A program made the position numbers and the translations under genes. 64,000 bases of DNA from Pseudocercospora fijiensis CIRAD86. Lineage: Eukaryota > Ascomycota > Dothideomycetes > Mycosphaerellales > Mycosphaerellaceae. Location: contig NW_006921538.1 of NCBI RefSeq assembly GCF_000340215.1, positions 868,001 through 932,000 of the forward strand, read 5' to 3'. Below the pieces are notes generated by a model. The model ran no database searches and had not been told where the DNA came from. It was given only the letters and a program-made list of their open reading frames with translations. Each line of letters starts with the position of its first letter. Position 1 is the first letter of the stretch. Below, piece by piece: positions 47,622 to 64,000 of the stretch.

Positions 47622-48473
47622 CTAACTAATAGCATGCGCAAAAACCTTCTGCGCCAACTCACTCAACAACCTCATTTTCTCCGGCTGATCCAACTCCTGA
47701 AAAACACTGTAAACACTCTTTCCCCTCTTATCCCTGATCGCTCCCAGCCTATTCCCCGCCACAGCACCAGCAAGCGCTCCAGGCACATTCGCGACAATGA
47801 ACCCCATAGCCCCACCACTCACCCCACCCACAATCGACCAGAAAACCTTTGTGGGCGAATTATTCGAATCCGCCATTCCTTCGTCTCTCATCATCTCTTC
47901 GAATACCGACCCGAATTGTTCGTTTGAGTATCGGTTTGCGTCATCTTCGGTCTTTGCGCTGCCGCCGAAACCGAAGGCCGACCATGGGAAGGAGCCGGGT
48001 TGCGGGCGTGGGATTTCCTCTTCGGCTGGGTCGGGTGCTGAACTGCTGGATGGGAAGCCGTGGAATTGGTTGCGGGTTAGGTCGTAGTCTTTTCGTCGGT
48101 TGGAGTCTGAGAGGGTGTAGTAGGCGTCGTTGATTTGTTGGAACTTTTTTGTGCGCGATTGGCGATCGGGGGACGTGGCGGGTACACGGTCGGGGTGGTG
48201 GCGGAGGGCTTGTCTGTAGGGAAGATATGGTTAGGAAGATTGCAGAATGAAGGCAAGGCGTATGGGAAGGAAAACCTTTTGTAGGCATCTCGGATTTGTT
48301 GTTGTGTGGCTTTGGAGTCGACTTCTAGCGCCGCGTCTATGCTTCGTTAGATTTTATGTTCATTTCGAAGTCTTCGGACTTGTGGACGTACAGTAGTCGA
48401 CTGGCGGCGCTGTATTTACATTAGCATTCTGCTGTCGTCAGTACCCATGTTTGCGCCGGAGCTTACCAGACAT
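47622..48473 (-). CDS. J-domain (DnaJ-type) co-chaperone, 225 aa
   Basis: Hsp70 co-chaperone. Four exons: 48467-48473 (7 nt: ATG TCT G), 48392-48409 (18 nt), 48276-48336 and 47622-48213; all introns are GT..AG and the total is 226 codons. Splicing builds MSAPPVDYYAALEVDSKATQ with QIRDAYKRQALRHHPDRVPA, a J domain with intact HPD. After a Ser/Pro/Glu linker containing a WSAFGFGG motif, the C-terminal region VFWSIVGGVSGGAMGFIVAN is a glycine-rich hydrophobic hairpin like a glycine zipper, so membrane association is likely. It lies beside the RIP-mutated block but is undamaged. Confidence 0.88.
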
Positions 48474-48879
48474 GATGGTGCCGAACTGCTTTGGTTATGA
48501 ATAGCCGTTATCTTGCGGGTGGATGTAGAAGACTCGTGCCTGACCCAGATTCGCGCGAGGTATGCTCCTAGGACGTTGTGTCGCGTGTTGCAAGGAGGAA
48601 AGCTATACGTCTTCACATGGGCCTGGTCATAGCAACGACGTCATCGTGCGCATGGACCAAGGCCCCCGGAAATGTCAGGGTACTGTGTTTTGCCGGAAGG
48701 TTGAGAATGCCAAGACTTGGGAAACCCTACTAAGAATTTACTAGCAAATCGCCTATTTCTTCCCATTCTTGCGCGATTATAGCCTTAAACACGATAAAAT
48801 ACAGGTTGTTAGTATAGCCGTTAAATATATAGTTTAAGGTATTGTTATTATTATTGCTCTATCTATTCTAGCTCTTCTA

Positions 48880-49880
48880 CGCCGCCCGAGCCCTTCCTAC
48901 CGCCCTACCTAAGTATACGATTCGACTCGCTAAAGAATACTTCGATAGCGGTTACGAGGTAATTAAAATAATAGCGAAAATAGATACAAGCTAGTCGACT
49001 ATATATCGTTAGAAGTACTACTATAGCCTATTTAGTAAGGTATTCCTACCTTCGGAGAGGTTTAAATCGAGTCGTAAGAGGAGGATAACGAAGGAGATAG
49101 AAATCTTCCTACTTAAGTACTTATTAGTAAAGCTAGAGGCATATCTCGAGGAAATATATACTACGCTATACGACTAGTTTAATATTGAATTAGATCCTTC
49201 TACGGTATAGCGCTACCTATATAGACTCGGTTAGAGTCGCAAGGCTACTCGTAAAGTTGCTAAAGAACGTAGTGCGCTAGCAAGAGCGGCCTAGTATATA
49301 AAGAGCTAGAAATAGCCTATAGATAAGTTAGTATTTATCGATAAGACTGCCTCTAATAAGAAGACTAGACACCGCAAATATAGATAGTCTCTAAAGGGTG
49401 TCGATTGCTACGACTATTAGTATACGCAACGGCAAGAGCGAATATCGGTACTTCTAGCACTTACAATCTATAGATACTTGCCTTACACTCTCTATATCTA
49501 AGGCGCGGTTAACTAGGTTACATTTAACGATTAGATTAAGAATAAAGTGCTACCTTTTCTTAACGATAATATAATTATTATAATAGACAACGCTTTAATC
49601 TACTATAGCTAGAAGGTCGAGGAGATAATCCGCTTAGCTAGATATACCCTTAAGTATCTACTACTATACTCGCCGGACTTAAATCCTATTAAACAGACCT
49701 TCGCTATACTAAAGAAGTAGATTAAGAAGAACAAAGATCTTATAGAAGATTTTGAGACCTTCTACGACTTCCTTATATAGGCTCTTAGTTATGTTAGCAA
49801 TATAGACGTTATAGGGTTGTTTAAACATAGCGGCTATAACGTATACGGCTTCGAGACTAACGAGGAAAGCTAGCTTACTA
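48880..49880 (+). pseudogene. Tc1/mariner-type DNA transposase relic
   Basis: The plus strand, read with TAG/TAA as former Gln/Trp, gives a Tc1/mariner transposase with a DDE_3 domain. A helix-turn-helix part lies around 49,060-49,240 (KRRITKEIEIFLLKYL). The first catalytic Asp is in VFIDKTASNKKTR at about 49,331. The second is in IIIDNALIYYS at about 49,575. The third region YSPDLNPIKQTFAILKK is at about 49,665 (the E is now K, consistent with G-to-A). It ends near GYNVYGFETNEES. At least a dozen stops make it inactive. Terminal inverted repeats were not resolved. Confidence 0.75.
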
Positions 49881-50229
49881 GCAACCTTTAGTCGCTTTAG
49901 ATTTAACTACTACAATATCGATAATATATCTTAGTATCTGTAGGATATTAAGATAACGTGTATCTAAAGCTCCGCTGCGATTTTTATATATATAACTAGT
50001 ATAGTGTTAGTATAGCAAAATTAATTAGGTATTAGTGCGTATACTAAGCTTTATATGTCTTACTAGCTTTCGATACTACCGAATTTCTCGAAGTAACGAC
50101 GGTAATAGAGACATACGTAATGGAGCAAATAGAACGCCATTCAATTCGCTATTACTATATAAACGCCTATCAAATCTGAACTAATAAAAGCGGCCGTCGC
50201 TCCGTTATAAATATTATTATTTTCTTACT

Positions 50230-50936
50230 CCTTCTTAGACAGTTTTTCCTTCTAGAAGCGCTTCAAACAGTTACGCAAGGTGCCTAGGTTACCTTTATAG
50301 AAGCTAAGCTCCTTCTACTCTCTTAAAGGAAGTTAATATAACTAGTCGCAGTTATATCGTTTAGTTATAAAGTATACTTCTATCTTTAAGAGCTGTTCTT
50401 TGTCTTCCGGCTCTTTCTATTTATGCTATATCGCTGCCTATATAAAGAACTGTCTAAGTAGACTTCTTAGCGGAGTATTAAGCTACTAAGCAACCTACTT
50501 TAGAACAGGTAAGTCTTGTTCTTCTTATTATTGTTGTATAGGCTAAGCTTCTTGCTAAGCGGTAGAAGCAACGCCTAGCTGCTAATTAATTAAGTTAAAC
50601 ATAGTCTCGAAGAGCTTAATATAGTTAATAGCCGGCGGCGGCGGCGGTAGATAAACTAGCGCAGAGCGAGCCTTTGCTACTAGTGTCTATAGCTCCTTCG
50701 AGGCGGCAAGTAGACTATTTAGTTTGCGAGATTGCTGCTTCTCTTTATATAACTACATCTTCGCTAATACACTATACGGCGGCTTCTTAACAGTTACACC
50801 TTCTTACTTCGTAGTAAGGGTATAAGACTATAGCTTTGTAGCCTTACTATAGAGCTAGTAATAGTACCGATCGATATCTAGCAATCCTTTAGGCCTATAG
50901 TAGTAGTTGTTATAGTTCTCGTAGCTAGGAAGGGTA
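50230..50936 (-). pseudogene. C-terminal part of an unknown ORF split by the hAT insertion
   Basis: The minus strand below the left element end is open apart from RIP-type stops. It starts TLPSYENYNNYYYRPKGLLD, then Gln-rich helical sequence with a polyproline run (VYLPPPPPA) and many former Gln codons. No family is recognised. Its 5' part is on the far side of the hAT element at 60,512-60,970. Deleting the element plus one copy of the TATATATA duplication joins the two pieces in frame (EILTNYIY then TLPSYENYNN). It probably belonged to an older repeat. Confidence 0.55.
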
Positions 50937-50944
50937 TATATATA
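50937..50944. repeat. Target-site duplication, left copy
   Basis: TATATATA immediately left of the hAT terminus. It is identical to the 8 bp at 60,504-60,511. The low-complexity TA run means the exact register could shift by two bases, but 8 bp is the standard hAT duplication length and gives an in-frame empty site. Confidence 0.7.
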
Positions 50945-51087
50945 TAGACCCCGTAGTAGTTCGGTTTCCGAACTACTAAACGTATATAGTTTGGTTTCTT
51001 AGCGGCGAACTAGCTCCCTAGTTCCGGTTTGGTTTTTTCGAACTATATAGATTCCTAGTTTAAACTAGAGACTATATTAGTTTTACC

Positions 51088-51415
51088 ATAAGGACACTCT
51101 TATTCGACTGCCGGCTACGATTGCCGGCTATAATAGTAACTCTGTTACATTTACTACGCTCTTTTGCCGTTGCTAGGGCGTAGTTACCGTTGCTAGGGCG
51201 TAGTTGCCGTTGCTAGGGCGTAGTTTTGCTATAAGGACACTCTTATTCGACTGCCGGCTACGATTGCCGGCTATAATAGTTACTAGGTTGTATTTACTAC
51301 GCTTTATTACCGTTGCTAGGGCGTAGTTACCGTTACTAGGGCGTAGTTGCCGTTGCTAGGGCGTAGTTGCTATTACCGGGGCGTAGTTACCGTAGTTACG
51401 AAAGCTTACCTATAT
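51088..51415. repeat. 143-bp duplication containing 20-bp tandem repeats
   Basis: ATAAGGACAC begins at 51,088 and again at 51,231 (143-bp period). Each copy has a pair of GCCGGCTA palindromes, then three or more 20-bp units CGTTGCTAGGGCGTAGTT(A/G)C (about 51,165-51,225 and 51,310-51,390). It lies just inside the left terminus of the hAT element and may be a subterminal transposase-binding or regulatory array. It carries fewer RIP changes than the coding parts because its words lack CA/TG. Confidence 0.75.
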
Positions 51416-51539
51416 AACGTTACGTAGGCGGCAACAATTAGGGCTTCGCGATATTCTTACACTTTTAACTTCTTCCTCTATACCTATACCGACAATAACT
51501 ACTATACGCTACGCCCCCGCCCCTTTCCCTTATAATAGC

Positions 51540-53040
51540 AAGAGAGAAGCGCGCCGCGCGCTAAACAGAAGATAGAACTAAAGACCGCGAGTTTGTTTTG
51601 CCTAAGCGTCTAACTAAAAAGCGCAAAACTAAAGAGGAGTACTCTATAAAGAAGAATTCCGTATAAGACCGCGAGAGAAAGGATAAGATAGATAAGGATA
51701 AAAGAGCTAAGGATAAGAGAAGAAAGGCGCGGAATAAGGCATTCTATCGATAGCTAGCGCCTATAGAAAAAAGTGAAGGTTAGAATAAGAAGACAATCTA
51801 AGAGAAGGCTAAGAGGAGGAAAGAATTGCGGCTAGTTTTCGAGCGTAAAGTTCTAGCAGCGTAAGTCAATCTAGCTAGCGGCCGTAGCTAGTAGCTATAG
51901 CCGGCAGCCGTAGCCGGTAGCTATAGCCGGCATATTTTTCTTTAACACGTTAACTAATAGCATTTAGACCTATAGCCGCTACCTCTATCGATACGACCGA
52001 TAGTAACGGAGATATTTAGATAGCCGAGAACAACAATGCTAGAGTTTAGGATGCCGCGATAGAGCTTAATACTACGAATAAAGGAACTAAAAAAAGCGAG
52101 GAGATACTATACGTCGATCTAGTAATAGGTACAGTCTTAGGGCCTAACGCTATAGACGATAAGCGTTAGGAGTAGATCGAGTATAGTTAAAGAGACGAGA
52201 TACTAGTAAAGGGCTAAGGTATAAGTCCTATTAATCTAGAAAATTATAGTTAAAGCTACTACGAAAAGCTAGCAAGGATTGGAATCGAGACTAGTCGTCT
52301 TTATATCCTCGATATAGAGTAGAAGTTTCTTTATTAGTATTAGAGCGAAGCCTTTACGTCTAGAAAGGCAAAGTAGCTTGCGATTAATACGATCGGGGCT
52401 AGGTATCTAGGGACGGCAGAAGTGTTACTATAGGAGGAAGGGGTACAGGTAATTATTCTATACTCGGTATATATAGCCGGCGTTCGTAGCCGGCAGATAC
52501 TAACAGTTAAATAGAAAGCGTTTCTCGAAGGCAGAGTGCTACTGCTACATGAAATCTTTACTAAGGCAGAGAGGGCTTGTATCCGGAATCTAAGCTGCTA
52601 GTGGGATAGGTTAGCGTTAGAATTCTCTAAATCTCTATATAAGCCTCCGAAGGATTACCTATTTCAGCGATACGGCTTTATCTCGACTACTCCGTAGGTA
52701 CCCGAAGAAGCTCGAGCGCTCTTTAAGGTCTTTACTAAGAAGCGGAAGGAGTTCGAGGATTAGGATTGGTTACTAGAGCTATTAGTTAGTCTTAGGTTTC
52801 GTAGTTAGACTCGGCCTAAGCATTTGCTTGTCGAGTGTCTTATACCGAAAGAGGATAGATTAAGACTAAAAACGAGCTTAGATTCGTTAGGTATAGTAGC
52901 TCGGTTCCGTTAGTAGAGAGAGCGCGTATAGAAGGCAAAATCAGGTAGTTAGGGTAGCTAGGAAAGAAATTCTGGTAGTTAGGCTGGCTAGGGTAGCTAG
53001 GAAAAAAAATCTAGTAGTTGGGTAGCTAGGAAACAAAAAA
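51540..53040 (+). pseudogene. Unknown element-encoded ORF (three exons), RIP-mutated
   Basis: Upstream of the transposase. Exon 1 (about 51,540-51,860) is Lys/Arg/Glu-rich (RDREKDKIDKDKRAKDKRRK). Intron 51,861-51,960 (GTAAGT..TAACTAATAG). Exon 2 to 52,448 (EEILYVDLVIGTVLGPNAID). Intron 52,449-52,514 (GTAATT..ATACTAAC..ATAG). Exon 3 contains VPEEARALFKVFTKKRKEFE and RTLIPKED-like segments, then decays into GS-type repeats near 53,000. Only RIP-type stops interrupt the frame. No known domain could be named. It resembles the accessory ORFs of large DNA transposons. Both introns contain GCCGGC arrays. Confidence 0.5.
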
Positions 53041-53174
53041 AAAAGGTAGCTAGCTATTTACTGCCTAGCTGTTCCTAACGATACGATGCTATAAAAGAAA
53101 GGGTGTTTCTCTATAGCTACTAGTATACATCTACTACTCCTAAGTCCTTACCTTACCGTACGAAACCTTAAAAC

Positions 53175-56100
53175 ATGCCGACCGACATTGTCTATATACT
53201 AGGCGCTATACTAGGAAGGGTAACAACGAGACGACAGTCGAAACAGTCTAGTATACGAGCGAGATTGCGACAACGTCGAGAGGAGGTCGCATACTTACCT
53301 TCGAGCCTATCGAGTCCTAGACGACGATTAGGGCTAGATTCATCCTCTCCGAATCCTAGTAGTAGGAATTCATTATAGGGTACTACTACCTAGTCCTTAC
53401 CTTTACGGAGTCTAAGTAGAAGGTTGTTCGGAGACATAAGAACATCGAGTATTAACCCGGAAATCTTCGAAAAGGCTAGCTAGGCGTATCTTTAGAAACC
53501 CGAGTATATAGAGCAGTTCAATTAATAGGTCTATAAGATATAGTTCCCTTTATACTTACGTTCGAAGGAGTGTAAACTCCGGAAGTACTCGATGCGATAG
53601 GGGAGTAAGGAGCGAACGGACACATTCTAGAAGTTCTTTATAGAGGGGGCATTACACCGTTATACGACTTCTCGACTTAAAGGTTAACTAGTAATTGTCT
53701 ATAACTTCTACGGTTCAATCTTAAAACACCCGAAACTAGGGGATAGGAACTCATCGCCTACGAACTATCTCTATTCTAAACGGTATCGGGAATCTTAAGG
53801 AGAGAGGAGAGTTAATATAGATATAGCGTTCTAGAAAGAGGTATGTCTTCTAAAATGCCGGCTATAGCTGCCGGCTACAGCTGCCGGCTATAGATTCCGG
53901 CTACCTAAATCAACCGTAGAGATCTAGCTAATTATTATAGGCTACGCTTAAGGAAGCTCTAGGATTAAAGGCTACCGATTTCTCCCCCGAAGACTTTAAG
54001 CAACTAGCAAACGAAATGCTAGCTATAAACGGTCTTCCGGAAGACTTCTACGAAAGGGAGTCTATATAGAAGACATACCTATATCTTATAAACTACCCTC
54101 CCCTATTTCTCGGCGCGATAACCTAGCGTATTATATTCGAAAAGAACAAAGAGGCTGCGTTAGACGACATTCGGGAGATCCTCCGTAATACTCGCCGAGT
54201 AGCTATTACTATCGATAGCTAGTTAAGCCGGACTATAAGAGCCTCCTTCCTCTCGATTATACTATACTTTATTAATTCGGATTAGAAACTCTAGGAACTT
54301 ATAATCGGATTCCCTAAAATTCTAGGTTCCTATACTAGTAAGGATATAGCGAAGCTTGTCTATACGGCAATAGATAGGGTTAGCGTAACAACGAAACTAA
54401 TCTCGATTACTACGGACAACGCTAGTAATAATCGAATATTATATAAGGCGTTGTATATACAATTCACTCGTATATATCTTTGAAATTACTAATTGTATCG
54501 ATAGGGTCGAGTACGTAGAGGAGACTACAAGGTCTATAATCTAGCTTAATCTTCCGAATATTAAGCTCGCTACGATTCCGGATACGTACGACAATACGCA
54601 CGATAATAACGATAAAGAGGAGCCTATTAATAGCCCTAGCCCTAACGAATCGGAGCCGACGTCGTTGCTAGTTACATCCCTATAGAAGTTTCCCTACCTC
54701 GCTTATATAGTTCAAATCGCGATCCGAGCCCTCTTTAAGACGCTTAAAATTGTACTATTAAACGACGACTAATAGAAGATCCTAGATAAGGATAAAGCAA
54801 AGTCGAAAGTCGAGAAACTTATTATAGTAATAAGACGGGATAAGGTAGAGAGCCTCGCTCTCGTTTTATATAAGGTATAACTTTTGTCTGTAGCCGGCAC
54901 CTATAGCCGGCAACCTAGTATAGTTCTAACTCTTTTTCTCTAGCTTCGTCGTCTAGCAATATATACGAACTCGAGCTTATAGAGATATAACCGATTCGAG
55001 GCTATTTAAAAGAACCTAATCGAGCGCCCTAAAACCGATACCTAGAATATCGTATAGAATAAGCGATAGCAAAAGCGGCCTCCTTAGCGCCTACTCCGTT
55101 TTACCTAAGACGTTAAGACCCGGTTCGATTCGACTTTCTATATAGTTACAAGGGGATGTACTTTACGTACCGCTCTCGAGATCTATTAGAGTTCCGAGAG
55201 TATTAAGTAGCTCGGCCTTACCGCCGCTAAATAGCGCTAAGTAGAGTATCTCGTCGATATTAGTAAGCATTACGCGAAGGTTACTACTACGATTAGAAGA
55301 ACCCGAGGACCGACGATCTACCTTGTCTTTACGTACTACAACTAGCTCTTTAACGAGCTCGAGGAAACCGTAGCTAAGCTAGCTAAGAAGAGCGTTCCCT
55401 AGAAAGTAGCTATAACGAAAGCTATAGACACCTCCTATACTAAATTGCATAAATATTATAGTACTACCTTTAACTCGTTCGGGGATATCTATAGCGTTAC
55501 GTGCTTACTTAACCCGGTAGAAAAGGATATATACTAGTAGAGGCTAGAATAGAAGGCGGACGAGGTATAGCCGAAGCATTACTAGACTATTCTAGAAAAG
55601 ATGTTCTACGAGCGTCGGAAAGAAACTAGTCTAAATGCAGCTCCTATAAAGAAAAAGAAGGTTTAGAAGGCTCCGATATTATACCTATTTCGTAGGTAGG
55701 AAGTAGAGGCAGAAGAGGAAGCAACTACTAAAGTAAATAAGGAAGAGTTCGATCTCTATCGGCGCGCGAGTAAGTACAAACCCGTAGGCTCGGAAAGAGG
55801 GCTAATAATCTCTAGATCTTACCGGTCTTCTAGACGAATTCGGAGACGATATTCTCGCTATATAGCAGCGGTTAGAGCCTAAGTTTCTAACGATAGCGTC
55901 GGTCGCTCGGGACGTCCTCGCTATCCCGAGCGCAGGCATAGGCTATAAGAGGTCTTTTAGTATCGCTCGTTACTAGGGCCGCTTTAATCGAACATACTCG
56001 CCTACTACCTTCGAATCTATTATAGTATTCCGATACTATCTCCTCTACTAGAATCGCTAAGGTAGGTTACTAAAGATTATACTAAAGGAGTTGATCGAGG

Positions 56101-56344
56101 AATTAGAAAACCTTAAGATCGAAGAAACCTAGGAGCGCGAAGAGAATGCGAAATTTAGTCTAAGCGAAACCCTAATTAGCGATAACGAAGAGGAGGAGGG
56201 CGGAGGCAGAAGGCGATACCGGGTCGAGAAGCGGAAACGTATATAGGCTTAGAGTAGCTTTAAGGAGACGAAGCGTTTATATATAAGGTAATATAGCCGG
56301 CGTATATAGCCGGTATATATCCGAAATGTGTTTCGAATTCCTAG
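53175..56344 (+). pseudogene. hAT-superfamily transposase, RIP-mutated
   Basis: ATG 53,175 starts MPTDIVYILGAILGRVTTRR. Introns at 53,841-53,940 and 54,875-54,943 contain GCCGGC arrays; a third, 56,288-56,344, lies at the 3' end. Catalytic-domain blocks: DDIREILRNTRRVAITIDS then a former Trp, LSRTIRASFLSIILYFINSD, the hAT first-Asp region near 54,200. KLISITTDNASNNRILYKAL is the second-Asp region near 54,430. The C-terminal dimerisation block is near 55,880-56,010 (FLTIASVARDVLAIPSAG.. then RSFSIAR), matching the hAT W..PxLAxxARdhLaIPas..ERxFS pattern. Over a dozen TAG/TAA codons occur at Gln/Trp positions. It is expected to have mobilised the surrounding 9.56-kb element. Confidence 0.8.
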
Positions 56345-56459
56345 GACCTAAACAGACTAGTTGCTATAGCAACCGACCCCGCTTACCTGCGGACTATTTC
56401 TAATTCTCTATTCGCTCTTCCTCTCCTTCTTCCCTTTCCCTATATTCTTAAAGATAAAC

Positions 56460-57834
56460 ATGCCTTAAGGATTCGGCTCTTCGGGCCTTCCTAAGCCGGC
56501 TGCCTCCCCTTCCTTAAGCTACTATCCTTTATTCGAATCTAACGATGACCTAATAAGGCGGTTTAATAGAAGACTATTTGTTCTAGAAGGCAAGAAGCAT
56601 TAATGTCTCCCTACGATTATATGCTTATTAATTTTCTAGGTCCTACCGATATACCCTCGTCGCCTAAACGCATAGATGAATATCTTTAGAGGCTAAAGGG
56701 CAAGGGTAAAGTAAGCTAAGTATAGGGAGACTGTAGCGAGAACGAGATATCGGAAGAGTAAGGCTCTCCGTAGTATATACGAAGGAAGGGGGTTCCTCGG
56801 AAAATAGTACCGAAAAACAAGAAGGCTATAGGTAGATAGAAGAAGGCTAAAAAGAGTAGGCGGACGAAGACTATTACGAAGAAAAGTTATCTTTCTATTA
56901 AAAGAAAGGGAACAAGGTAGGACTCGACGACAAAGAAGCGGCGCTTTAAACTAGGTACTATTGCCCTTCGCTAGATCCGGCTTTTCTAAAACAAAAGAGG
57001 GACCGAGCTTTTAATCCTTAAGACTCCCTTCTAGCGACTCGTCCGAGAAATTATATTAGATTTTCGGTTTAGTATGCGATTTACGGCTAAGGCGATTAGT
57101 GCTCTTTAGGAAGCTACGGAGGCATTTCTCGTAACCGAGCTTAAGCTTTTAAACCTCCTTACTATCTATACGAAGCGGGTTACTCTTTAAAATAAAGATA
57201 TACAGCTTCTAGCTAAAATTCGGCGTCGGTTTATAGCGGATTAGTTAGAAATTGTATTTAGTCGTTAGATTAACCTAGGAGGAGGCCCATTTTCGCATCC
57301 TTTTACTAGCTATAGGTACCGGCTACATTTCTGATTTTATCTCCGCGCCGTCCCTAAATCTAAGGTACGAAGTAGAAACCTAGCGCTCTATATTTACCCG
57401 GCTATTACAGAGACGAGCTATATTTAGATTAGTTTCTTCGTATATCGCGACCTAGCGGGTAGTAAGCGAAAGGGCGATAGAACGTTTATAATACGTCTCT
57501 ATTTAGACCTAAAACATAAAGGTCCTAAGGAGCCCTAGTATCCTAACTATAAGGAGATTCTTTAGTATTAGCACTTTAATCCTCTATACTACGAGGCAGA
57601 TAGCAAGCCTACGAGAGAGAAACTTTAACGAGAAATTCTCTATAATGCGTAGCGCTATTATATAGCTATAGATGCGTACTAAGTCCGGCAACTCGAAGAA
57701 GAATTAAGACAGCGTATTAGCGACCGAGGAAGAGATCGATAGTATACTAGTAGAGTCGAGGTCTTATAAGCGAAGTATAAGATAATATAGGCTCTTAGTC
57801 GTATAGAGTAACGTACTATATAAATAACTAGGCG
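56460..57834 (+). pseudogene. Histone H3-fold fusion protein gene carried by the hAT element (RIP-mutated)
   Basis: ATG 56,460 starts MP(Q)GFGSSGLPKPAASPS. A likely GC-AG intron, 56,590-56,639, restores frame. The second exon stays in one frame to about 57,834, interrupted only by stops at former Gln/Trp codons. After a basic N-terminal region comes an H3-like tail (RRTKTITKKS, compare ARTKQTARKS). The full histone H3 fold follows: FKLGTIALR(Q)IRLF, then TELLILKTPF(Q)RLVREI, RFTAKAISAL(Q)EATEAFL and YTKRVTL(Q)NKDIQLLAKIRR. It has a four-residue insert before TELL and a one-residue-shorter loop after alpha-2. A ~250-residue C-terminal extension of unknown type follows (FFVYRDLAGSKRKGDRTFII). 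Not core H3; a CENP-A-like or DNA-binding variant is possible. Confidence 0.75.
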
Positions 57835-58555
57835 TACTACTCTTATTTACTTACGACCTATATCCTAGGATACTCTTCTCGTACTTTTTATACTCTTTTC
57901 TAATACCTTACCTATAAGCGCTCTGCGACAACCGAGTGAATATAAGCTATAGGGTTTCCGCTCGGTACCTTAGCCTCCGAGATAGGGCGGAGTTGAATTT
58001 AGAGCGATAGCCGGCACTCGTAGCCGGTATATAGAGACGGTAGTAGGCCTTTTCCTACTAAATAACTAGCTTGTTTAGTATAGCCTACCTGATATTTCTT
58101 ATATTTACTAGCAATAGGCCTAGGTTACTTATAAGATTACTATAGCTAGTAAAGGCATTACTAAAGAATATCTATACTATAGTAAGATACTATTATTACG
58201 CCGGCTATTTATTAAAAGGAGGCTTTCGCCTATTACTATACTAGCTATATATGCCGGCTATATTTCAAAGTCTCCCGTACCTGCCTTTTTTAGCCGTGCC
58301 TGCCTTTTTTAGCCGTACCTACCTTCTTTCCTTGCTCTAACGTTACTATAATGTAGGCTTACGCGAAGCTTACTCTGTTGCCTAGCGATACCGCGATACT
58401 ACCGCTATATTCAACCTTCGCATCGATACCTATACCTCTACGCTCTATATCTACTACCTCCGTAATACCCTCGCTCCGCGCGCTTTCGTATACCTTCGTA
58501 ACGCACTTTTTTCCTTAATTCGACGACTTTTATAATAGCGAGTCTACTTAACTAA
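57835..58555. other. Spacer between the two H3 genes inside the hAT element
   Basis: RIP-mutated, no convincing frame. It contains GCCGGC pairs at 58,008-58,030 and single copies at about 58,200 and 58,252. A short direct repeat (CCTGCCTTTTTTAGCCGT, two copies plus a partial) lies at about 58,280-58,325. A pyrimidine-rich stretch before 58,560 may be the promoter of the second H3 gene. Confidence 0.45.
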
Positions 58556-59250
58556 GTTACGACGCCTCGCAAGAAGGGACCTAGTGCTTCTACGGGTCGT
58601 AATAAGACCGGAAATAGTAGAACGAGCATAGTATATTAACGTAAGAGGGCTGCTACTACTACCGCTAGCTCCGGTACTAGAAAGGGCGTCGCGAGCAAGG
58701 CTCCGCGTAAGACAACGGCGGGCAAGGCTCTACGTAAGACGACAACTAGCGCTTCTACTACTAGTAGCAATCGTACGAAGCGTCGATAGCGCCTAGGAAG
58801 TAAGTCCTATTTATAGCCGGCAGCGTAGCCGGCAGCGTAGCCGGTAGCGTAGCCGGCATTCTTACTGTCTTTTTACTAATCCTTCTTTAGCCGTAGCCCT
58901 CCGTAAGATTCGGCAGTATTAGAAGAGTTCTTAGCTCCTAATCCGTAAAGCTCCTTTCTAACGACTTATTCGCGAAATTGCCTAGGATTATAGAACGGAC
59001 CTTCGCTTCTAAGCCTCCGCGATAGGCGCCCTTTAAGAGGCTATAGAAGCCTACCTAGTTCGTATCTTCGAATATATGTTTCTCTTCTACCTCTTTTCGG
59101 ACTATACTAATACTATTTTAGCGGTTAACCTTATAGCTATCTACGCGAAGCGTATAACGATTATAGACAAGGATTTCAAAGCACTCGATTAGATTCTAAA
59201 AGGCTAGAATGTCTACATTCGAGACGGTACTAGGTAGGATAGATGTTCTA
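58556..59250 (+). pseudogene. Second histone H3 gene in the hAT element, intron-containing, RIP-mutated
   Basis: Exon 1 (about 58,556-58,799) encodes a long H3-like tail: TPRKKGPSASTGRNKTG, then RKGVASKAPRKTTAGKALRK, compare TGGKAPRKQLASKAARK. Intron 58,800-58,890 (GTAAGT..TTACTAAT..TTTAG) holds four GCCGGC palindromes. Exon 2 reads LGTVALRKIR(Q)Y, then LLIRKAPF(Q)RLIREIA, DYRTDLRF(Q)ASAIGAL and EAIEAYLVRIFE, very close to canonical H3. A second intron at 59,074-59,121 has its donor changed to ATATGT. It joins to SVNLIAIYAKRITIIDKDF, exactly matching H3 spacing (FEDTNLCAIHAKRVTI). Stops are all RIP-type. The frame continues past the H3 end. The start codon was not identified with certainty. 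Confidence 0.75.
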
Positions 59251-59499
59251 GTAGAAAGGATGTTCGTAGTAATATCTATAAGCTTTTCTATATACGAAAT
59301 GAGCCGCTGTTATACGGCGCTGTATACCGCGCTCTAAATACTCTCTAAGTATATATATATAGTACAGTATGCTTTATTAGCCGTACGGAATAGAAGTCTC
59401 CTAAAATCCCGTTAGTACTAAGCAGTAAAAAGGCCGGCTACGCTGCCGGCTACGCTGCCGGCTACGCTACTAGCTACGCTGCTAGGTTTTTTAAAGAAC

Positions 59500-60063
59500 T
59501 AAAAGAAGATAGACATTCCGGTTGATTTGTATTAGTTTAGATTTTTATAAAAAGAAAACAGGGAAAAATAAGGAAGGTTAAAGAGCCTAATAGTTATAGT
59601 TATAGGCACTATCCCTGTTTTCTAGAGCATATTATATACCTGCCTTCGCAACTCTACCTAATACTCCCTCTAAATATCCTTATACTCTACCTACTAAAAA
59701 TTCAACTAGGTACCTAGACCTATAGCTGCCTCTATATCTTTTACTATCTTCTATAGGTTAAAGGCCTCTTCTATAGCAGCCTCTACCTCCTTATACAACA
59801 CGAAGTTACTACCTACCCTACCCTTTATATCTCCTAAATAACTAAGAGTTCTAAGGAACGAACTAGTATTCGGCCTTAGTATAGCGAGTAACTAGTGGAA
59901 CGTTCTATAGAGCTGCCTTATAGCTCTTTTATATACTATGCCGATACCGAGGGAGGAGCTATCCTAGTACTTAATATTGTCGAATAGTTCAGTAGGAAAG
60001 TGTATAAACTTCTTAAGGAGGAGGACTTCTAGGGAAATCGATAAGTTCTACCTAGATCTAGAT
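59500..60063 (-). pseudogene. Unidentified minus-strand ORF near the right end of the hAT element
   Basis: Read on the minus strand with RIP-type stops restored as unknown residues, the segment gives a coherent helical protein: LFDNIKYQDSSSLGIGIVYK, then RTLSYLGDIKGRVGSNFVLY and KEVEAAIEEAFNL. It continues toward 59,500 and possibly into the GCCGGC array at 59,432-59,486, which on this strand would read as SVAG repeats. No family is recognised. It is transcribed opposite to the other element genes. Confidence 0.35.
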
Positions 60064-60483
60064 AAAGACATTCTACTAAGCAGTTAGGGAATTGAACCGT
60101 AAACGAAAGGATGAAATTCATACCTAAGGAATGCAGTTTCTAAACTAAACTATAATACCTTATATATATATATATGTGCTTTTGATTAGTTAGTGCCCTT
60201 AGCTAATTGTCTATAGATTTGAGGTTATATAAGTACCTTTATACAACTACGTAGCCTAAGTAGGATTCGAAAATTCTATAAGTACTAAGGACTAAAAATG
60301 CCGGCTACGCTGCCGGCTACACTGCTAAGTCTTACAAAGGGCTTGCTTGAAGCTACGTATACATTCGTACACTTCTTAAAAACCGATAAATTATATAGTT
60401 CGAACTAGCTACTTATATAGTTGCTTAGCAAACCAACCTAAACCAAACTAGAGTTTCGGCTTAGCAAACCAAACCAAACCAAC

Positions 60484-60503
60484 CCGAACTACTACGAGGT
60501 CTA
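60484..60503 (-). repeat. Right terminal inverted repeat of the hAT element
   Basis: Reverse complement reads TAGACCTCGTAGTAGTTCGG, matching the left end except for one C/T difference. Inside it lie repeated AAACC/AACCAAACC motifs (60,429-60,484), mirrored at the left end by GGTTTGGTTT (about 50,988 and 51,026). These are typical subterminal binding motifs of hAT transposases. Confidence 0.8.
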
Positions 60504-60511
60504 TATATATA
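60504..60511. repeat. Target-site duplication, right copy
   Basis: TATATATA, identical to 50,937-50,944 at the other end of the hAT element. Confidence 0.7.
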
Positions 60512-60970
60512 GTTAGTAAGAATCTCGGTAGTATAGTTGCTATCTTTACGCTCTTTAGTAATAAAGGTAAGACTATCTATATTCTGTTAATTATTCGGCT
60601 TTAATTTGCTAACCTTAAGGATAGCTCTAGCTCCGGTATCTTTAGTAGTAGTCTTAAACTCGATATTAATCTTAATCTTGTCTTTAGTATTATTTATTAA
60701 TTCTATAGCGTAGTCGAGAGCCTTATTGTAATCTTCCGCTATAGAAGAAATTAGTATAGGTTAAGCGGAAGTAGCCGTTAGGCAAGAGCGATAGTAAGAG
60801 AACCTTACCCTTCTTCTAACTCTGCTTAAACTAGTTACCTTTCGCGACCTTCGCGGCGGATACGATTAATATATAGTCGCCGACGTAGAGCTACTTCTTC
60901 CTATCTCTATTCAGACCCTTACAGCTAGCGGAATGACGTTGTGGTTTATTTATAAACCCCTTGCGAAGCA
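60512..60970 (-). pseudogene. N-terminal part of the unknown ORF split by the hAT insertion
   Basis: The minus strand reads LYVGDYILIVSAAKVAK, then after a probable ~100-nt intron (GTAACT..TACTAATTTCTTCTATAG, about 60,750-60,850) AEDYNKALDYAIELINNTKD and KINIEFKTTTKDTGARAILK. It ends EILTNYIY at the element boundary. The sequence resumes at 50,936 on the other side. Only RIP-type stops are seen. The family is not recognised. It records that the hAT element jumped into an already existing repeat or gene. Confidence 0.5.
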
Positions 60971-61114
60971 AGGGTCTAAGGATAAGTTGTATAAAAGCGG
61001 CCATTTCTGTACTATAGAAATACTAGGTTAGCATATAGCACGAAATACACAGATATTAAAATAGGAGGTTGTAGAGCAAGCAATTACGAATTCAAATGTC
61101 TAAAAATCTCATCT

Positions 61115-61369
61115 ATGCGACGTATAGATGTTAAGAAACTGGCGATGCCGCAAGCTAGGTTAGATAGGTTAGCTACAGCTAGGTGTGTAGCTAGCCGCCC
61201 GCTTACTAAGCGTAAAACCCATTTTGCTAATATATTAATTAAACACATCGAGCTTGTAGAGACAATGCATCCGCTTTATTTATCGACTATTCGACCTTCT
61301 AGCGACGTAGGGTTGTTAAGAAACAAGCAGTTAGAGAAAGTACCTGTCCTAGCAGCCGCCTTAGGCTAA
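61115..61369 (+). other. Short intact ORF (84 codons) within RIP-mutated DNA
   Basis: ATG 61,115 (MRRIDVKKLAMPQARLDRLA) to TAA 61,369 without RIP-type stops, which is unusual in this block. It is basic and helical (RKTHFANILIKHIELVETMH). It may be a surviving fragment of a larger repeat-encoded protein. No family is recognised and it could be chance. Confidence 0.3.
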
Positions 61370-61493
61370 AATCCGCGCTAAGCCTTCACTAACTACATCG
61401 TATCGCACCGCGCTAACTATGCCGTATCGTACTACATTATAACTAATCTTTAAGAGGTCGGCCTCTATATAGAAGATATCGAGCTCGCTGCGC

Positions 61494-62198
61494 TTAATTG
61501 CAGCCGATAATATACTTGTTCTCGCCCTTGTTCTCGTCCTTGTTCTCGTCCTTCTTCTCGTCCTTCTTCTCGTCCTTGTTTCCGCTAGTTCCTTCGGTTC
61601 GATCGAGGGCGATAACTTCGATAGCCGGCAGGCCTAATCGGTTAGCATTTGTATAAGATCTATATAAAGCGGCACTCGTACTAGTTATTATCGTATATGC
61701 CGATACAAGAACAGACTTCTTAGATTTAGTAACGTTGGCTAGAATAGCGGCATTCTTAAATACTAGTTCGTAGAGGATGTCGACCTGTCCGATACGTAGA
61801 AGCACGTTATAGCCTATAGTGTCCTTTAATACACGCTAAAGGCCCTCGCTAGCGATAGTATACTTAATGTTATTCGAATATGCTTTAGCATCGACGACTA
61901 GGTCCTATAAGGCTATATACGTAAGCGGTGTCTTAACTAGCTGCTTTAGCTTGTCGGAAATACGCTCAAAGGAATCGTATACGACAAAGTCGCGCTTCTT
62001 ATCGAATAGGTTAATATAGGAGATACGGTCCTTTATCGCAGTAATATCGAGTTCCTTATTAGAGGCTATATTTACTAAGCAGTCGAGGGTTAGATAAGAG
62101 CGAGGTCGATATAGGTCGATAGAGGTCGATGTTAGGTTTAAAGTTGAAGTTAAAGTTGAAGTTCTAGAACACGGTGTCTTTAAGAAGCGCTTAGGCAC
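61494..62198 (-). pseudogene. Unknown ORF divergent from the helicase, with Lys/Glu/Asp repeat
   Basis: One frame runs through two open parts, 61,905-62,198 and 61,494-61,805, separated only by RIP-type stops. N-terminal part: VPKRFLKTPCSRTSTLTSTL. Middle: DKKRDFVVYDSFERISDKLK. C-terminal part: GLPAIEVIALDRTEGTSG, followed by a (D/N)(E)KK repeat encoded by a 12/18-bp TTCTCGTCC minisatellite (about 61,515-61,580). No known domain. Its head-to-head placement with the RecQ-like helicase (about 170 bp gap) suggests both belong to one repeat family. Confidence 0.45.
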
Positions 62199-62372
62199 TT
62201 CTATATAGGGCTATACGTAAATTATGTGCGACGTAACGCGACTAACATACGTTACGTTCAAACGCAGTAGACACCCGCTCGTTAACATCTCCTATTCCTT
62301 CGGCTCTTAAATACTTCCGGTCTCGAATACTAAACACACTAGCACTTAATCTAGCATACCGCACACCGCATA

Positions 62373-64000
62373 ATGCTACGTACTACTAAGGCGAGTCGGC
62401 GCAAGCAGGCAAAGCTAGCGTCTAGCACAATCCGCGGTCGCCTAGCTAGCAAGTATTATACACGTATCGGACAAGAGAAGCAGCGTTAGTATAAGAAGCA
62501 TACGAAGACTCGATTGCTAGGTCGTATATCTATTAATCGTGCGCGGCCGAAATAGTCCGAAGATCGTAGCGTACTACTGCCGGATAACGATGCATCGCTA
62601 TAGACCTAGAAGCAGTACTTCTTAGACCTATGCGACCGTATTGTCTAGGATACTCTAGACTAGCTGTTATTATAGCAGATCTAGCGCCTTGTCTTCGATG
62701 CTAGCGAGCGACTAGAGGCTCTACTATTCTAGCGCCTAATTATCTAGGCTAGCTTATGCCGTATTCTATAGATAATGCATCTATAAGCCGACAATCCTTA
62801 GCCGACGGAAATGCAGATTAACGTTGTTAAGAGCCTTGTCTTCGGACAAAGTAATACGCTAATAATCGCGAAGACTAGTGCTAGTAAGACGCTTCTATTC
62901 TAGGCGTTTACGATGTTGACTGGCTTAATAACCATCTAGGTCGTGCTACTTACTCGTATTAGCGATGAGTAGAAGGACGATATCGAGCGCGTAATAAGTC
63001 GTCTTAAGGGCGAGTCTAATCTTGTTAAAGTCTGCCTAATTGATGCCGATACTAAGAAGCTCGACCCGACGATGTTTAATAATATCCGCGCTAGCCGCTA
63101 CTAGTATATTATCCTTAGTCCTAAGCAGGCCTCTATGCCTAACTTCCGCGATATACTACGCAAGGTCTCCGATATAATCGGATTGGTCGTTATTAATAAG
63201 GTCTACCTAGTTAAGAAGTAGAAGGACTTCCGCAAACAGTTCTCGGAGATCTACTAGTTACGCCGCCTATTGCGTACCGACACGGTATAGCTCGGTGCCT
63301 CTGTAACAGTTACTAAAGATACTATAGAATACGTCCTCGATCGAGCTAGGTTTCGTAATATCGGTAATAACGCATTTATAACACAAATCTTCCGTATAAG
63401 CATCGACTAAGTTAAGACTTAGTATATTATAGAGACTGTACCGGATGTTAAAGACTTCTCGCCCCTCTACTTTATCGTTAATAATGCTATTAACGCTAAG
63501 ACCGGCGAGGCGTCTCCGCAGAATGTCTCTAAGACTAAGATCTTCGTAGATAGCTTAATAGAGGTCGACAACTTGTCTTATATAATCCGTTTATAGCTAG
63601 TCGACCTAACTAAGGACATAGCAGACCTAAAGAAGAAGTATACTTGGGACAGCGGCGGCTATAATGTATATAATATCGTCAACTTTTATATAAGCCGTAT
63701 CGCTAAAGTAGATAAGGATAAGCGATACAACGCCTTCAAATAGCGCGACTCCGTCTGTCGCTTTATAATTGGAACTCTAGCAACTGCGATTAGTACTAAT
63801 GTTCTAGATATTACTATATTAATCCTCTAGGGCTTTCTAATTACTAAGAACATCGACGATATAGTCTAGAAGATTGGTCGTACTAGGCGTACACTGCTAT
63901 ATAGTGCGCGAGCGAAGGCGATTATCTTCCTGCCGTAGTAGGTCGATAACACGAAGAAGGATATACCTCCTAGCTCTAACTACAAGTCGATAGTACCTCC
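62373..64000 (+). pseudogene. RecQ-like DEAD/DEAH helicase, RIP-mutated, truncated by window edge
   Basis: ATG 62,373 (MLRTTKASRRKQAKLASSTI). One frame runs to 64,000, broken only by RIP-type stops. Helicase motifs: a Q/I region INVVKSLVFG(Q)SNTLIIAKT, where the Walker A GxGKT has decayed to SASKT at about 62,874; VVLLTRISDEQKDDIERVIS (Ia); ILSPKQASMPNF; the DEAH position reads VVINKVYLVKK near 63,190; motif VI reads KIGRTRRTLL near 63,870. The layout fits RecQ-family or telomere-linked helicases, which fungi often carry in subtelomeres. The 3' end is outside the window. Confidence 0.75.

What the first reader, a model, noticed from the sequence alone, without database searches (positions are those of the whole stretch)
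56460..59250. Two histone H3-domain genes as cargo of a hAT transposon
Both genes keep the H3 fold from the alpha-N helix to alpha-3 with correct spacing. One is close to canonical H3 with a lysine-rich tail. The other has an H3-like tail, a small insert before TELL and a ~250-residue C-terminal extension. Both lie between the inverted termini of one element and share its GCCGGC-array introns or flanks. I know of no described fungal hAT with H3 genes. An element-encoded H3 could influence target choice, mark its own chromatin, or evade silencing or centromere exclusion. The identification is by eye from RIP-damaged reading frames.
Basis: partly seen in the sequence, partly recalled or inferred. 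Interest (0 to 1): 0.95.

Follow-up and report, generated by a model that had tools for sequence, protein, structure and literature searches.

The report
Published histone-carrying hAT transposon, dead copy
The window holds one mutation-killed copy of a fungal jumping gene, already described in print, that carries two histone H3-like genes; comparing divergent copies adds hints that at least one of these histones was a working part of the element rather than passive baggage.

Summary
The window holds a 9,559-bp hAT-type element (50945-60503) with inverted termini and an 8-bp target duplication. It carries two RIP-mutated histone H3 genes: H3-a (Pfam Histone E=3e-21) and H3-b (6e-19). All 105 scored genomic matches to H3-a carry stops (946 first-look candidates). 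The claim of novelty fails: it matches the H3-carrying hAT of Pseudocercospora fijiensis (Dhillon 2019, PMC6710886); a first such fungal hAT was published in 2013 (PMC3538342). The species is inferred.

Points I did not find in the parts of those papers that I read: (1) H3-b has two introns by sequence signals; the published 16-aa insertion is a 48-nt intron, so "no introns, hence a captured transcript" does not hold for H3-b. (2) GCCGGC arrays recur through the element, five of them in intron-like stretches. (3) There are at least three subfamilies; between A and B, non-RIP differences suggest purifying selection on the H3 cores (omega about 0.5, p=0.002, driven by H3-b), not on the tails. 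A-C comparisons and an earlier transversion test were not significant. (4) The 250-residue extension of H3-a is not conserved. Neither H3 looks like CENP-A.

The parts
50937..50944 (.). left target site duplication TATATATA (identical to 60504-60511)
   Evidence: low-complexity sequence, but two other copies show perfect 8-bp duplications (ATTCTAGT, GGAATTGA) outside the same TAGACC.. ends
50945..50964 (+). left terminal inverted repeat, TAGACCCCGTAGTAGTTCGG (20 bp, length taken from PMC6710886)
51580..52910 (+). ORF1, probable gene of unknown function in about three exons (51580-51866, 51972-52435, 52520-52910), with GCCGGC arrays in the two gaps
   Evidence: frames chosen by eye; no Pfam match, no significant PDB-sequence match; selection not significant over all exons
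53175..56255 (+). transposase gene, several exons (frames chosen by eye); hAT dimerisation domain at about 55848-56012
   Evidence: PF05699 E=0.0021, 18.3 bits, below the curated cut-off of 21.4; omega 0.66, p=0.0013 on non-RIP differences
56460..57273 (+). H3-a gene: long lysine-rich N-terminal part, H3 fold 56849-57223, alike in subfamilies A and B to about 57273
   Evidence: PF00125 E=3e-21; PDB H3.3C 4.7e-25; end of A/B homology
58565..58799 (+). H3-b exon 1: N-terminal tail with KAPRK-type repeats
58800..58890 (+). H3-b intron 1: GTAAGT ... CTAAT ... TTTAG, holding a 12-bp GCCGGC array whose unit number differs between copies
   Evidence: GTAAGT in 24 of 25 aligned copies (the other reads N there); sequence signals only, no RNA evidence
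58891..59073 (+). H3-b exon 2: alpha-N to alpha-2 of the H3 fold
   Evidence: PF00125 E=6.3e-19
59074..59121 (+). H3-b intron 2, 48 nt, very likely the '16-aa insertion' of the literature
   Evidence: begins GT in 10 of 25 aligned copies (5 with GTATGT), AT in 14, AC in 1; CTAAT and TTTTAG in the 23 copies that reach there; sequence signals only
59122..59350 (+). H3-b exon 3: alpha-3 and a C-terminal stretch that looks alike in subfamilies A and C
51111..60320 (.). 12 GCCGGC-array clusters of two or more units: 51111-51131, 51254-51274, 51898-51931, 52474-52494, 53858-53904, 54891-54911, 56294-56314, 58008-58028, 58201-58261, 58814-58857, 59434-59465, 60301-60320
   Evidence: two further single motifs at 57319 and 57398; genome-wide 1,724 matches of a two-unit pattern, 0 for the reversed control
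60484..60503 (-). right terminal inverted repeat
60504..60511 (.). right target site duplication TATATATA

Best explanation
The window holds a RIP-inactivated copy of the already published H3-carrying hAT DNA transposon of Pseudocercospora fijiensis. While alive it was probably an autonomous element with four genes: ORF1, a hAT transposase, H3-a and H3-b. It moved by cut-and-paste, leaving 8-bp duplications. Shown: the two H3 genes, the termini, the many copies with stops in every scored match, the splice-signal pattern of H3-b, and a non-neutral pattern between subfamilies A and B. Inferred: H3-b (and less surely H3-a) was expressed and spliced, and was kept by selection at the element level as a histone variant. 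The likeliest role, not shown, is a variant H3 that enters nucleosomes and changes the chromatin state of the element or of its targets. Repeat-induced point mutation later destroyed every copy that I scored.
For: Identity with the published element: 9,559 bp (published 9.5-9.9 kb), two H3 genes, 8-bp duplication, CpA/TpG depletion, 73.9 Mb assembly with a largest contig of 11.88 Mb, intact host H3 on contig 6 (published: 74 Mb, 11.8 Mb, scaffold 6). H3 identity. Selection, window versus L043: H3 cores omega 0.49, p=0.0018 (transversions alone 0.38, p=0.0026), wrong-frame controls 1.38 and 0.89, tails 1.00, transposase 0.66. A looser test gave z>1.64 in 85 of 85 A x B and 10 of 10 B x C pairs, which are not independent. 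Introns.
Against: H3-a alone is not significant (omega 0.70, p=0.21). A versus C cores are not significant (0.69, 0.83, 0.87 in three pairs; 0 of 34 pairs above z 1.64 in the looser test). The first, fixed-transversion test was not significant (p=0.18 A-B, 1.0 A-C, 0.47 B-C). Some by-eye exons show no constraint (transposase 54490-54870 omega 2.34, ORF1 exon c 1.61, H3-a exon 1 2.97). Tails evolve as if unconstrained. Several gene sets and modes were tried, without correction for multiple tests. Within-A pairs, with a mean of 2.4-2.6 changes, gave an odd wrong-frame result (frame+1: 50 of 115 pairs above z 1.64), so small samples are unreliable. No expression evidence. The transposase profile match is below cut-off. 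The species name rests on matching features.
Confidence: 0.6

Rival explanations
1. Passive cargo, the published view: a host H3 transcript was captured and amplified by the transposon, had no role for it, and all copies were pseudogenised by RIP.
For: Published for this species. H3-a lacks an intron where host H3 has one. Tails evolve without constraint, A versus C is not significant, and the first selection test was not significant.
Against: H3-b has two introns by sequence signals, one within a codon of a host H3 intron and in the same phase, so a transcript copy does not explain it simply. H3 cores show a selection signal between A and B comparable to the transposase. H3-a and H3-b, only 46-54% identical to each other, both keep the fold in three subfamilies (one copy per subfamily compared).
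Confidence: 0.35
2. Independent nested insertions or pseudogenes of host H3 beside a hAT.
For: RIPped sequence with other repeats surrounds the element.
Against: H3-a and H3-b sit at matching places in all 7 fetched subfamily B and C copies and in 27 of 29 further A loci; both lie between termini with a target duplication.
Confidence: 0.02
3. One or both are transposon-borne CENP-A-like centromeric histones.
For: H3-a has a divergent tail and a 2-residue insert before the TELL motif.
Against: No lengthened loop 1, unlike the host CENP-A candidate; H3-a is 55-57% identical to host H3 and 51-53% to the host CENP-A candidate, H3-b 58-69% and 47-56%.
Confidence: 0.03

Closest known systems
H3-carrying hAT of Pseudocercospora fijiensis and five related species (Dhillon et al. 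2019, PMC6710886)
   Same: Length, two H3 genes per full element, 8-bp duplication, TIRs, hAT transposase, RIP, hundreds of dead copies, one intact host H3 on scaffold/contig 6
   Different: No difference found in the element itself. [quoted passage not shown]
H3L-carrying hAT of Pyrenophora tritici-repentis (Manning et al. 2013, PMC3538342; passages seen)
   Same: hAT with an additional ORF of unknown function and a divergent H3 that is neither canonical H3 nor CenH3
   Different: 5.6 kb, one H3L, nearly identical and mostly intact copies, with ESTs; PMC6710886 reports no similarity between its nucleotide sequence and the six consensus elements. Protein-level relationship not testable here
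Fungal DNA transposons (including hAT) that encode a TET/JBP dioxygenase (PMC12730594; passages seen)
   Same: Transposons carrying an epigenome-related gene, proposed there to help escape methylation-based silencing
   Different: An enzyme acting on 5-methylcytosine, not a histone; other fungi

Membership tests
P. fijiensis H3-hAT (PMC6710886) | full length 9.5-9.9 kb with two H3-like genes | tested here: met
   9,559 bp, H3-a and H3-b
P. fijiensis H3-hAT (PMC6710886) | second H3 copy longer by 16 aa | tested here: met
   48-nt stretch 59074-59121 in H3-b
P. fijiensis H3-hAT (PMC6710886) | hundreds of RIPped copies, one intact host H3 on scaffold 6 | tested here: met
   H3-a: 946 first-look candidates, 105 scored, all 105 with stops. 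Histone profile: 150 of 772 candidates scored, two without stops, C6:1692026 (H3) and C5:606604 (CENP-A-like)
P. fijiensis H3-hAT (PMC6710886) | same species by named record | not testable with these tools
hAT superfamily | 8-bp target duplication and short TIRs | tested here: met
   of 6 copies looked at, both ends were found in 5; perfect 8-bp duplications in 3 of these, not in 2
hAT superfamily | hAT dimerisation domain PF05699 | tested here: inconclusive
   E=0.0021, 18.3 bits against a cut-off of 21.4
hAT superfamily | RNase H-like catalytic domain / DUF659 | tested here: inconclusive
   no significant profile or PDB match with X at stops; a TTDNASNN stretch resembles a recalled hAT motif
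Histone H3 | PF00125 profile above cut-off and H3 order alpha-N to alpha-3 | tested here: met
   76.3 and 68.9 bits against 26.4; alignment to PDB H3.3C
CENP-A / CenH3 | lengthened loop 1 and closer identity to CENP-A than to H3 | tested here: not met
   against the host CENP-A candidate only
Captured H3 transcript (retrocopy) | absence of introns | tested here: not met
   H3-b has two introns by sequence signals; H3-a shows none in its core

The most novel reading that the evidence does not exclude
The H3 genes were working accessory genes of the transposon, kept by selection during its mobile life. A transposon-encoded H3 variant without the ARKS contexts of K9 and K27 could have loaded on the element or its targets and resisted heterochromatin marking. 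The separate Pyrenophora hAT with H3L would then be a second, possibly independent, recruitment of H3 by hAT elements.
Probability: 0.3. Interest if true: 0.75.

Novelty: already known. Interest (0 to 1): 0.35.

Why it matters
The finding itself is in print, so the window adds no new kind of element. What could matter is the reinterpretation: the 2019 paper treats these H3 genes as captured transcripts turned pseudogene, whereas introns in H3-b and a selection signal on the H3 cores suggest element genes with a role. If confirmed with named genomes, this would put histones beside other chromatin-related genes known in transposons (TET/JBP dioxygenases, and SET methyltransferases as cited in PMC12730594).

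Tried and rejected
Chance or by-eye artefact: rejected by profile E-values. Nested host pseudogenes: rejected. CENP-A: not met. C-terminal extension of H3-a: rejected, homology ends near 57273. Viral contigs: 18 stretches matched a pattern, none encodes a relative. Rfam: nothing at gathering threshold in 48000-64000. ORF1: no Pfam match, no significant PDB match.

Selection tests: the first, on fixed transversions, was not significant. A looser one, counting all transitions outside CpA/TpG, gave omega 0.42 for the cores. Because C/T changes outside CpA also vary among A copies (52% of variable columns in H3-a, 56 of 108), I replaced it with a direction-aware null, which weakened but kept the result. 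The H3-b core segment starts at 58887 and so includes 4 intronic bases. In one search the ten extra pairs were picked by hand. Rows dropped: the H3-b alignment holds 25 of 39 copies, because 14 A copies covered less than half of the region; one search used 17 A copies. Of nine places fetched as possible divergent copies, two (L047, L051) proved to be subfamily A. Within-A pairs had too few changes to test.

ARKS was found in 0 of 39 H3-a and 0 of 25 H3-b copies, scanning H3-a from 56642 and H3-b exon 1 only; 4 of 5 subfamily B tails have RKS, so loss of the K9/K27 context is only suggestive. The H3-b part of the RIP context count failed with a script error and was not repeated.

Paper searches that bear on 'not in print': open-licence PMC papers only. 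I read PMC6710886 abstract, background, results, discussion and methods; PMC3538342, PMC4981457, PMC13041039 and PMC12730594 as passages only. No supplement was read.

Full report
What is there. The window lies in an unnamed 73.9 Mb assembly. [quoted passage not shown] Inside this tract lies one element, 50945-60503, with TAGACCCCGTAGTAGTTCGG-type inverted termini and TATATATA on both sides. I looked at the ends of five other copies. One left end was not in the stretch fetched. Of the five copies with both ends, the window included, three have perfect 8-bp duplications and two do not.

H3 genes. Read with X at stops, H3-a matches PF00125 at 3e-21 and PDB Histone H3.3C at 4.7e-25. H3-b matches PF00125 at 6.3e-19. 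With one copy per subfamily, H3-a cores are 55-57% identical to the host's own intact H3 and 51-53% to a host CENP-A candidate; H3-b cores 58-69% and 47-56%; H3-a and H3-b are 46-54% identical to each other. Neither has the longer loop 1 seen in the host CENP-A candidate. The host H3 is on contig 6, without stops.

Copies. The own-genome search gave 946 first-look candidates for H3-a and scored 105; all 105 carry stops. For H3-b it gave 809 candidates and scored 150. Of the 29 best other loci (L002-L030, chosen by H3-a score), 27 continue into H3-b and 2 (L016, L027) break off at about 58441-58453. Seven fetched divergent copies fall into subfamily B (L043, L044, L045, L046, L048; about 71-85% identical to the window in aligned pieces) and C (L049, L050; about 82-89%, apart from one short piece at 68%); all 7 carry both H3 genes. 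Between A and B, homology is lost at about 57273-58159 and about 59430-60328, so the proposed C-terminal extension of H3-a is not a conserved part of the gene.

It is published. Manning et al. 2013 described a 5.6-kb hAT with an H3-like gene in Pyrenophora tritici-repentis (passages). Dhillon et al. 2019 described, in P. fijiensis, a 9.5-9.9 kb hAT with 20-bp TIRs, 8-bp duplications, CpA-to-TpA RIP and one or two H3-like genes, 784 H3-like sequences in all, the second copy longer by 16 aa, and the intact H3 on scaffold 6. The P. fijiensis genome paper gives 74 Mb, 28 scaffolds above 50 kb and a largest scaffold of 11.8 Mb; the assembly here has 73.9 Mb, 30 contigs and a C1 of 11.88 Mb. I conclude that this is that element, probably in that genome; no named record was available to prove the species.

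What I would add or correct. (1) H3-b introns, by sequence signals only. Intron 1 (58800-58890) starts GTAAGT in 24 of 25 aligned copies, the other reading N there; it carries a GCCGGC array of variable unit number. Intron 2 (59074-59121) is 48 nt; it starts GT in 10 of 25 copies, AT in 14 and AC in 1, with a CTAAT branch-like site and TTTTAG in the copies that reach there. Without it the fold aligns to H3 with no gap, so the published 16-aa insertion is very likely an intron. Host H3 has an intron one codon away from intron 1, in the same phase. The published inference that a transcript was captured, because introns are absent, does not hold for H3-b; H3-a shows no intron in its core. (2) Arrays. 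GCCGGC arrays form 12 clusters of two or more units in the element, five of them (51898, 52474, 53858, 54891, 58814) in stretches with intron-like borders as read by eye. A two-unit pattern occurs 1,724 times in the genome, reversed control 0; only the first places, all on one contig, are listed, and those I compared by eye lie beside H3-b matches, so restriction to this family is likely but not shown. [quoted passage not shown] Their function is unknown; transposase binding or a role in splicing are guesses. (3) ORF1, upstream of the transposase, has no known domain.

Selection. To ask whether the H3 genes were dead weight, I compared the window with L043 at differences that RIP does not readily explain: transversions, plus transitions outside CpA/TpG with a direction-aware null. 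H3 cores: 60 differences, 28 synonymous against 17.9 expected, omega 0.49, p=0.0018; transversions alone 0.38, p=0.0026; transitions alone 0.60, p=0.086. H3-b: 0.41, p=0.0012. H3-a: 0.70, p=0.21. Tails: 1.00. Transposase: 0.66, p=0.0013. ORF1: 0.87, p=0.24. Wrong-frame controls for the cores: 1.38 and 0.89. Of ten further pairs picked by hand, the seven A-B and B-C pairs agree (z 2.09 to 3.05) and the three A-C pairs do not reach significance (z 0.35 to 1.08). Pairs within a contrast are not independent, and p-values are one-sided and uncorrected for several tests. A first test on fixed transversions was not significant, and some by-eye exons show no constraint. I read this as moderate evidence that at least H3-b was constrained while the subfamilies diverged.

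Mechanism. Most likely the element was an autonomous hAT whose H3 proteins acted in chromatin. A route to evading K9/K27-based silencing is suggested by the lack of ARKS in the scanned parts of all 39 H3-a and 25 H3-b copies aligned, against its presence in host H3, but is weakened by RKS in 4 of 5 subfamily B tails. This step is inference. The passive-cargo view remains a serious rival.

Noticed in passing
window 48740-50930: AT-rich, RIPped sequence left of the element, with a stretch resembling a Tc1/mariner-type transposase (by eye, recalled).
   Followed up: no
window 62383-64000: Right of the element a long RIPped frame that by eye resembles a RecQ-like helicase; no Pfam match in the frames tried with X at stops.
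   Followed up: partly
L003, L009, L011-L014, L021, L022, L028-L030: These 11 of the 29 A loci repeat a segment equal to window 57635-57996 between the two H3 genes.
   Followed up: no
L016 and L027, break at window-equivalent 58441-58453: Two A copies break off at nearly the same point; a further H3-b match lies about 10 and 14 kb beyond the expected place, suggesting later insertions.
   Followed up: partly
H3-b tail, L046: The KAPRK-type tail repeat is longer in L046 than in the other copies printed, so the histone tail itself contains a variable repeat.
   Followed up: no
L058 and L059 versus window about 60073-60115: One copy is inserted in sequence that also occurs in the window's element between H3-b and the right end, so that part may be a nested repeat.
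   Followed up: no
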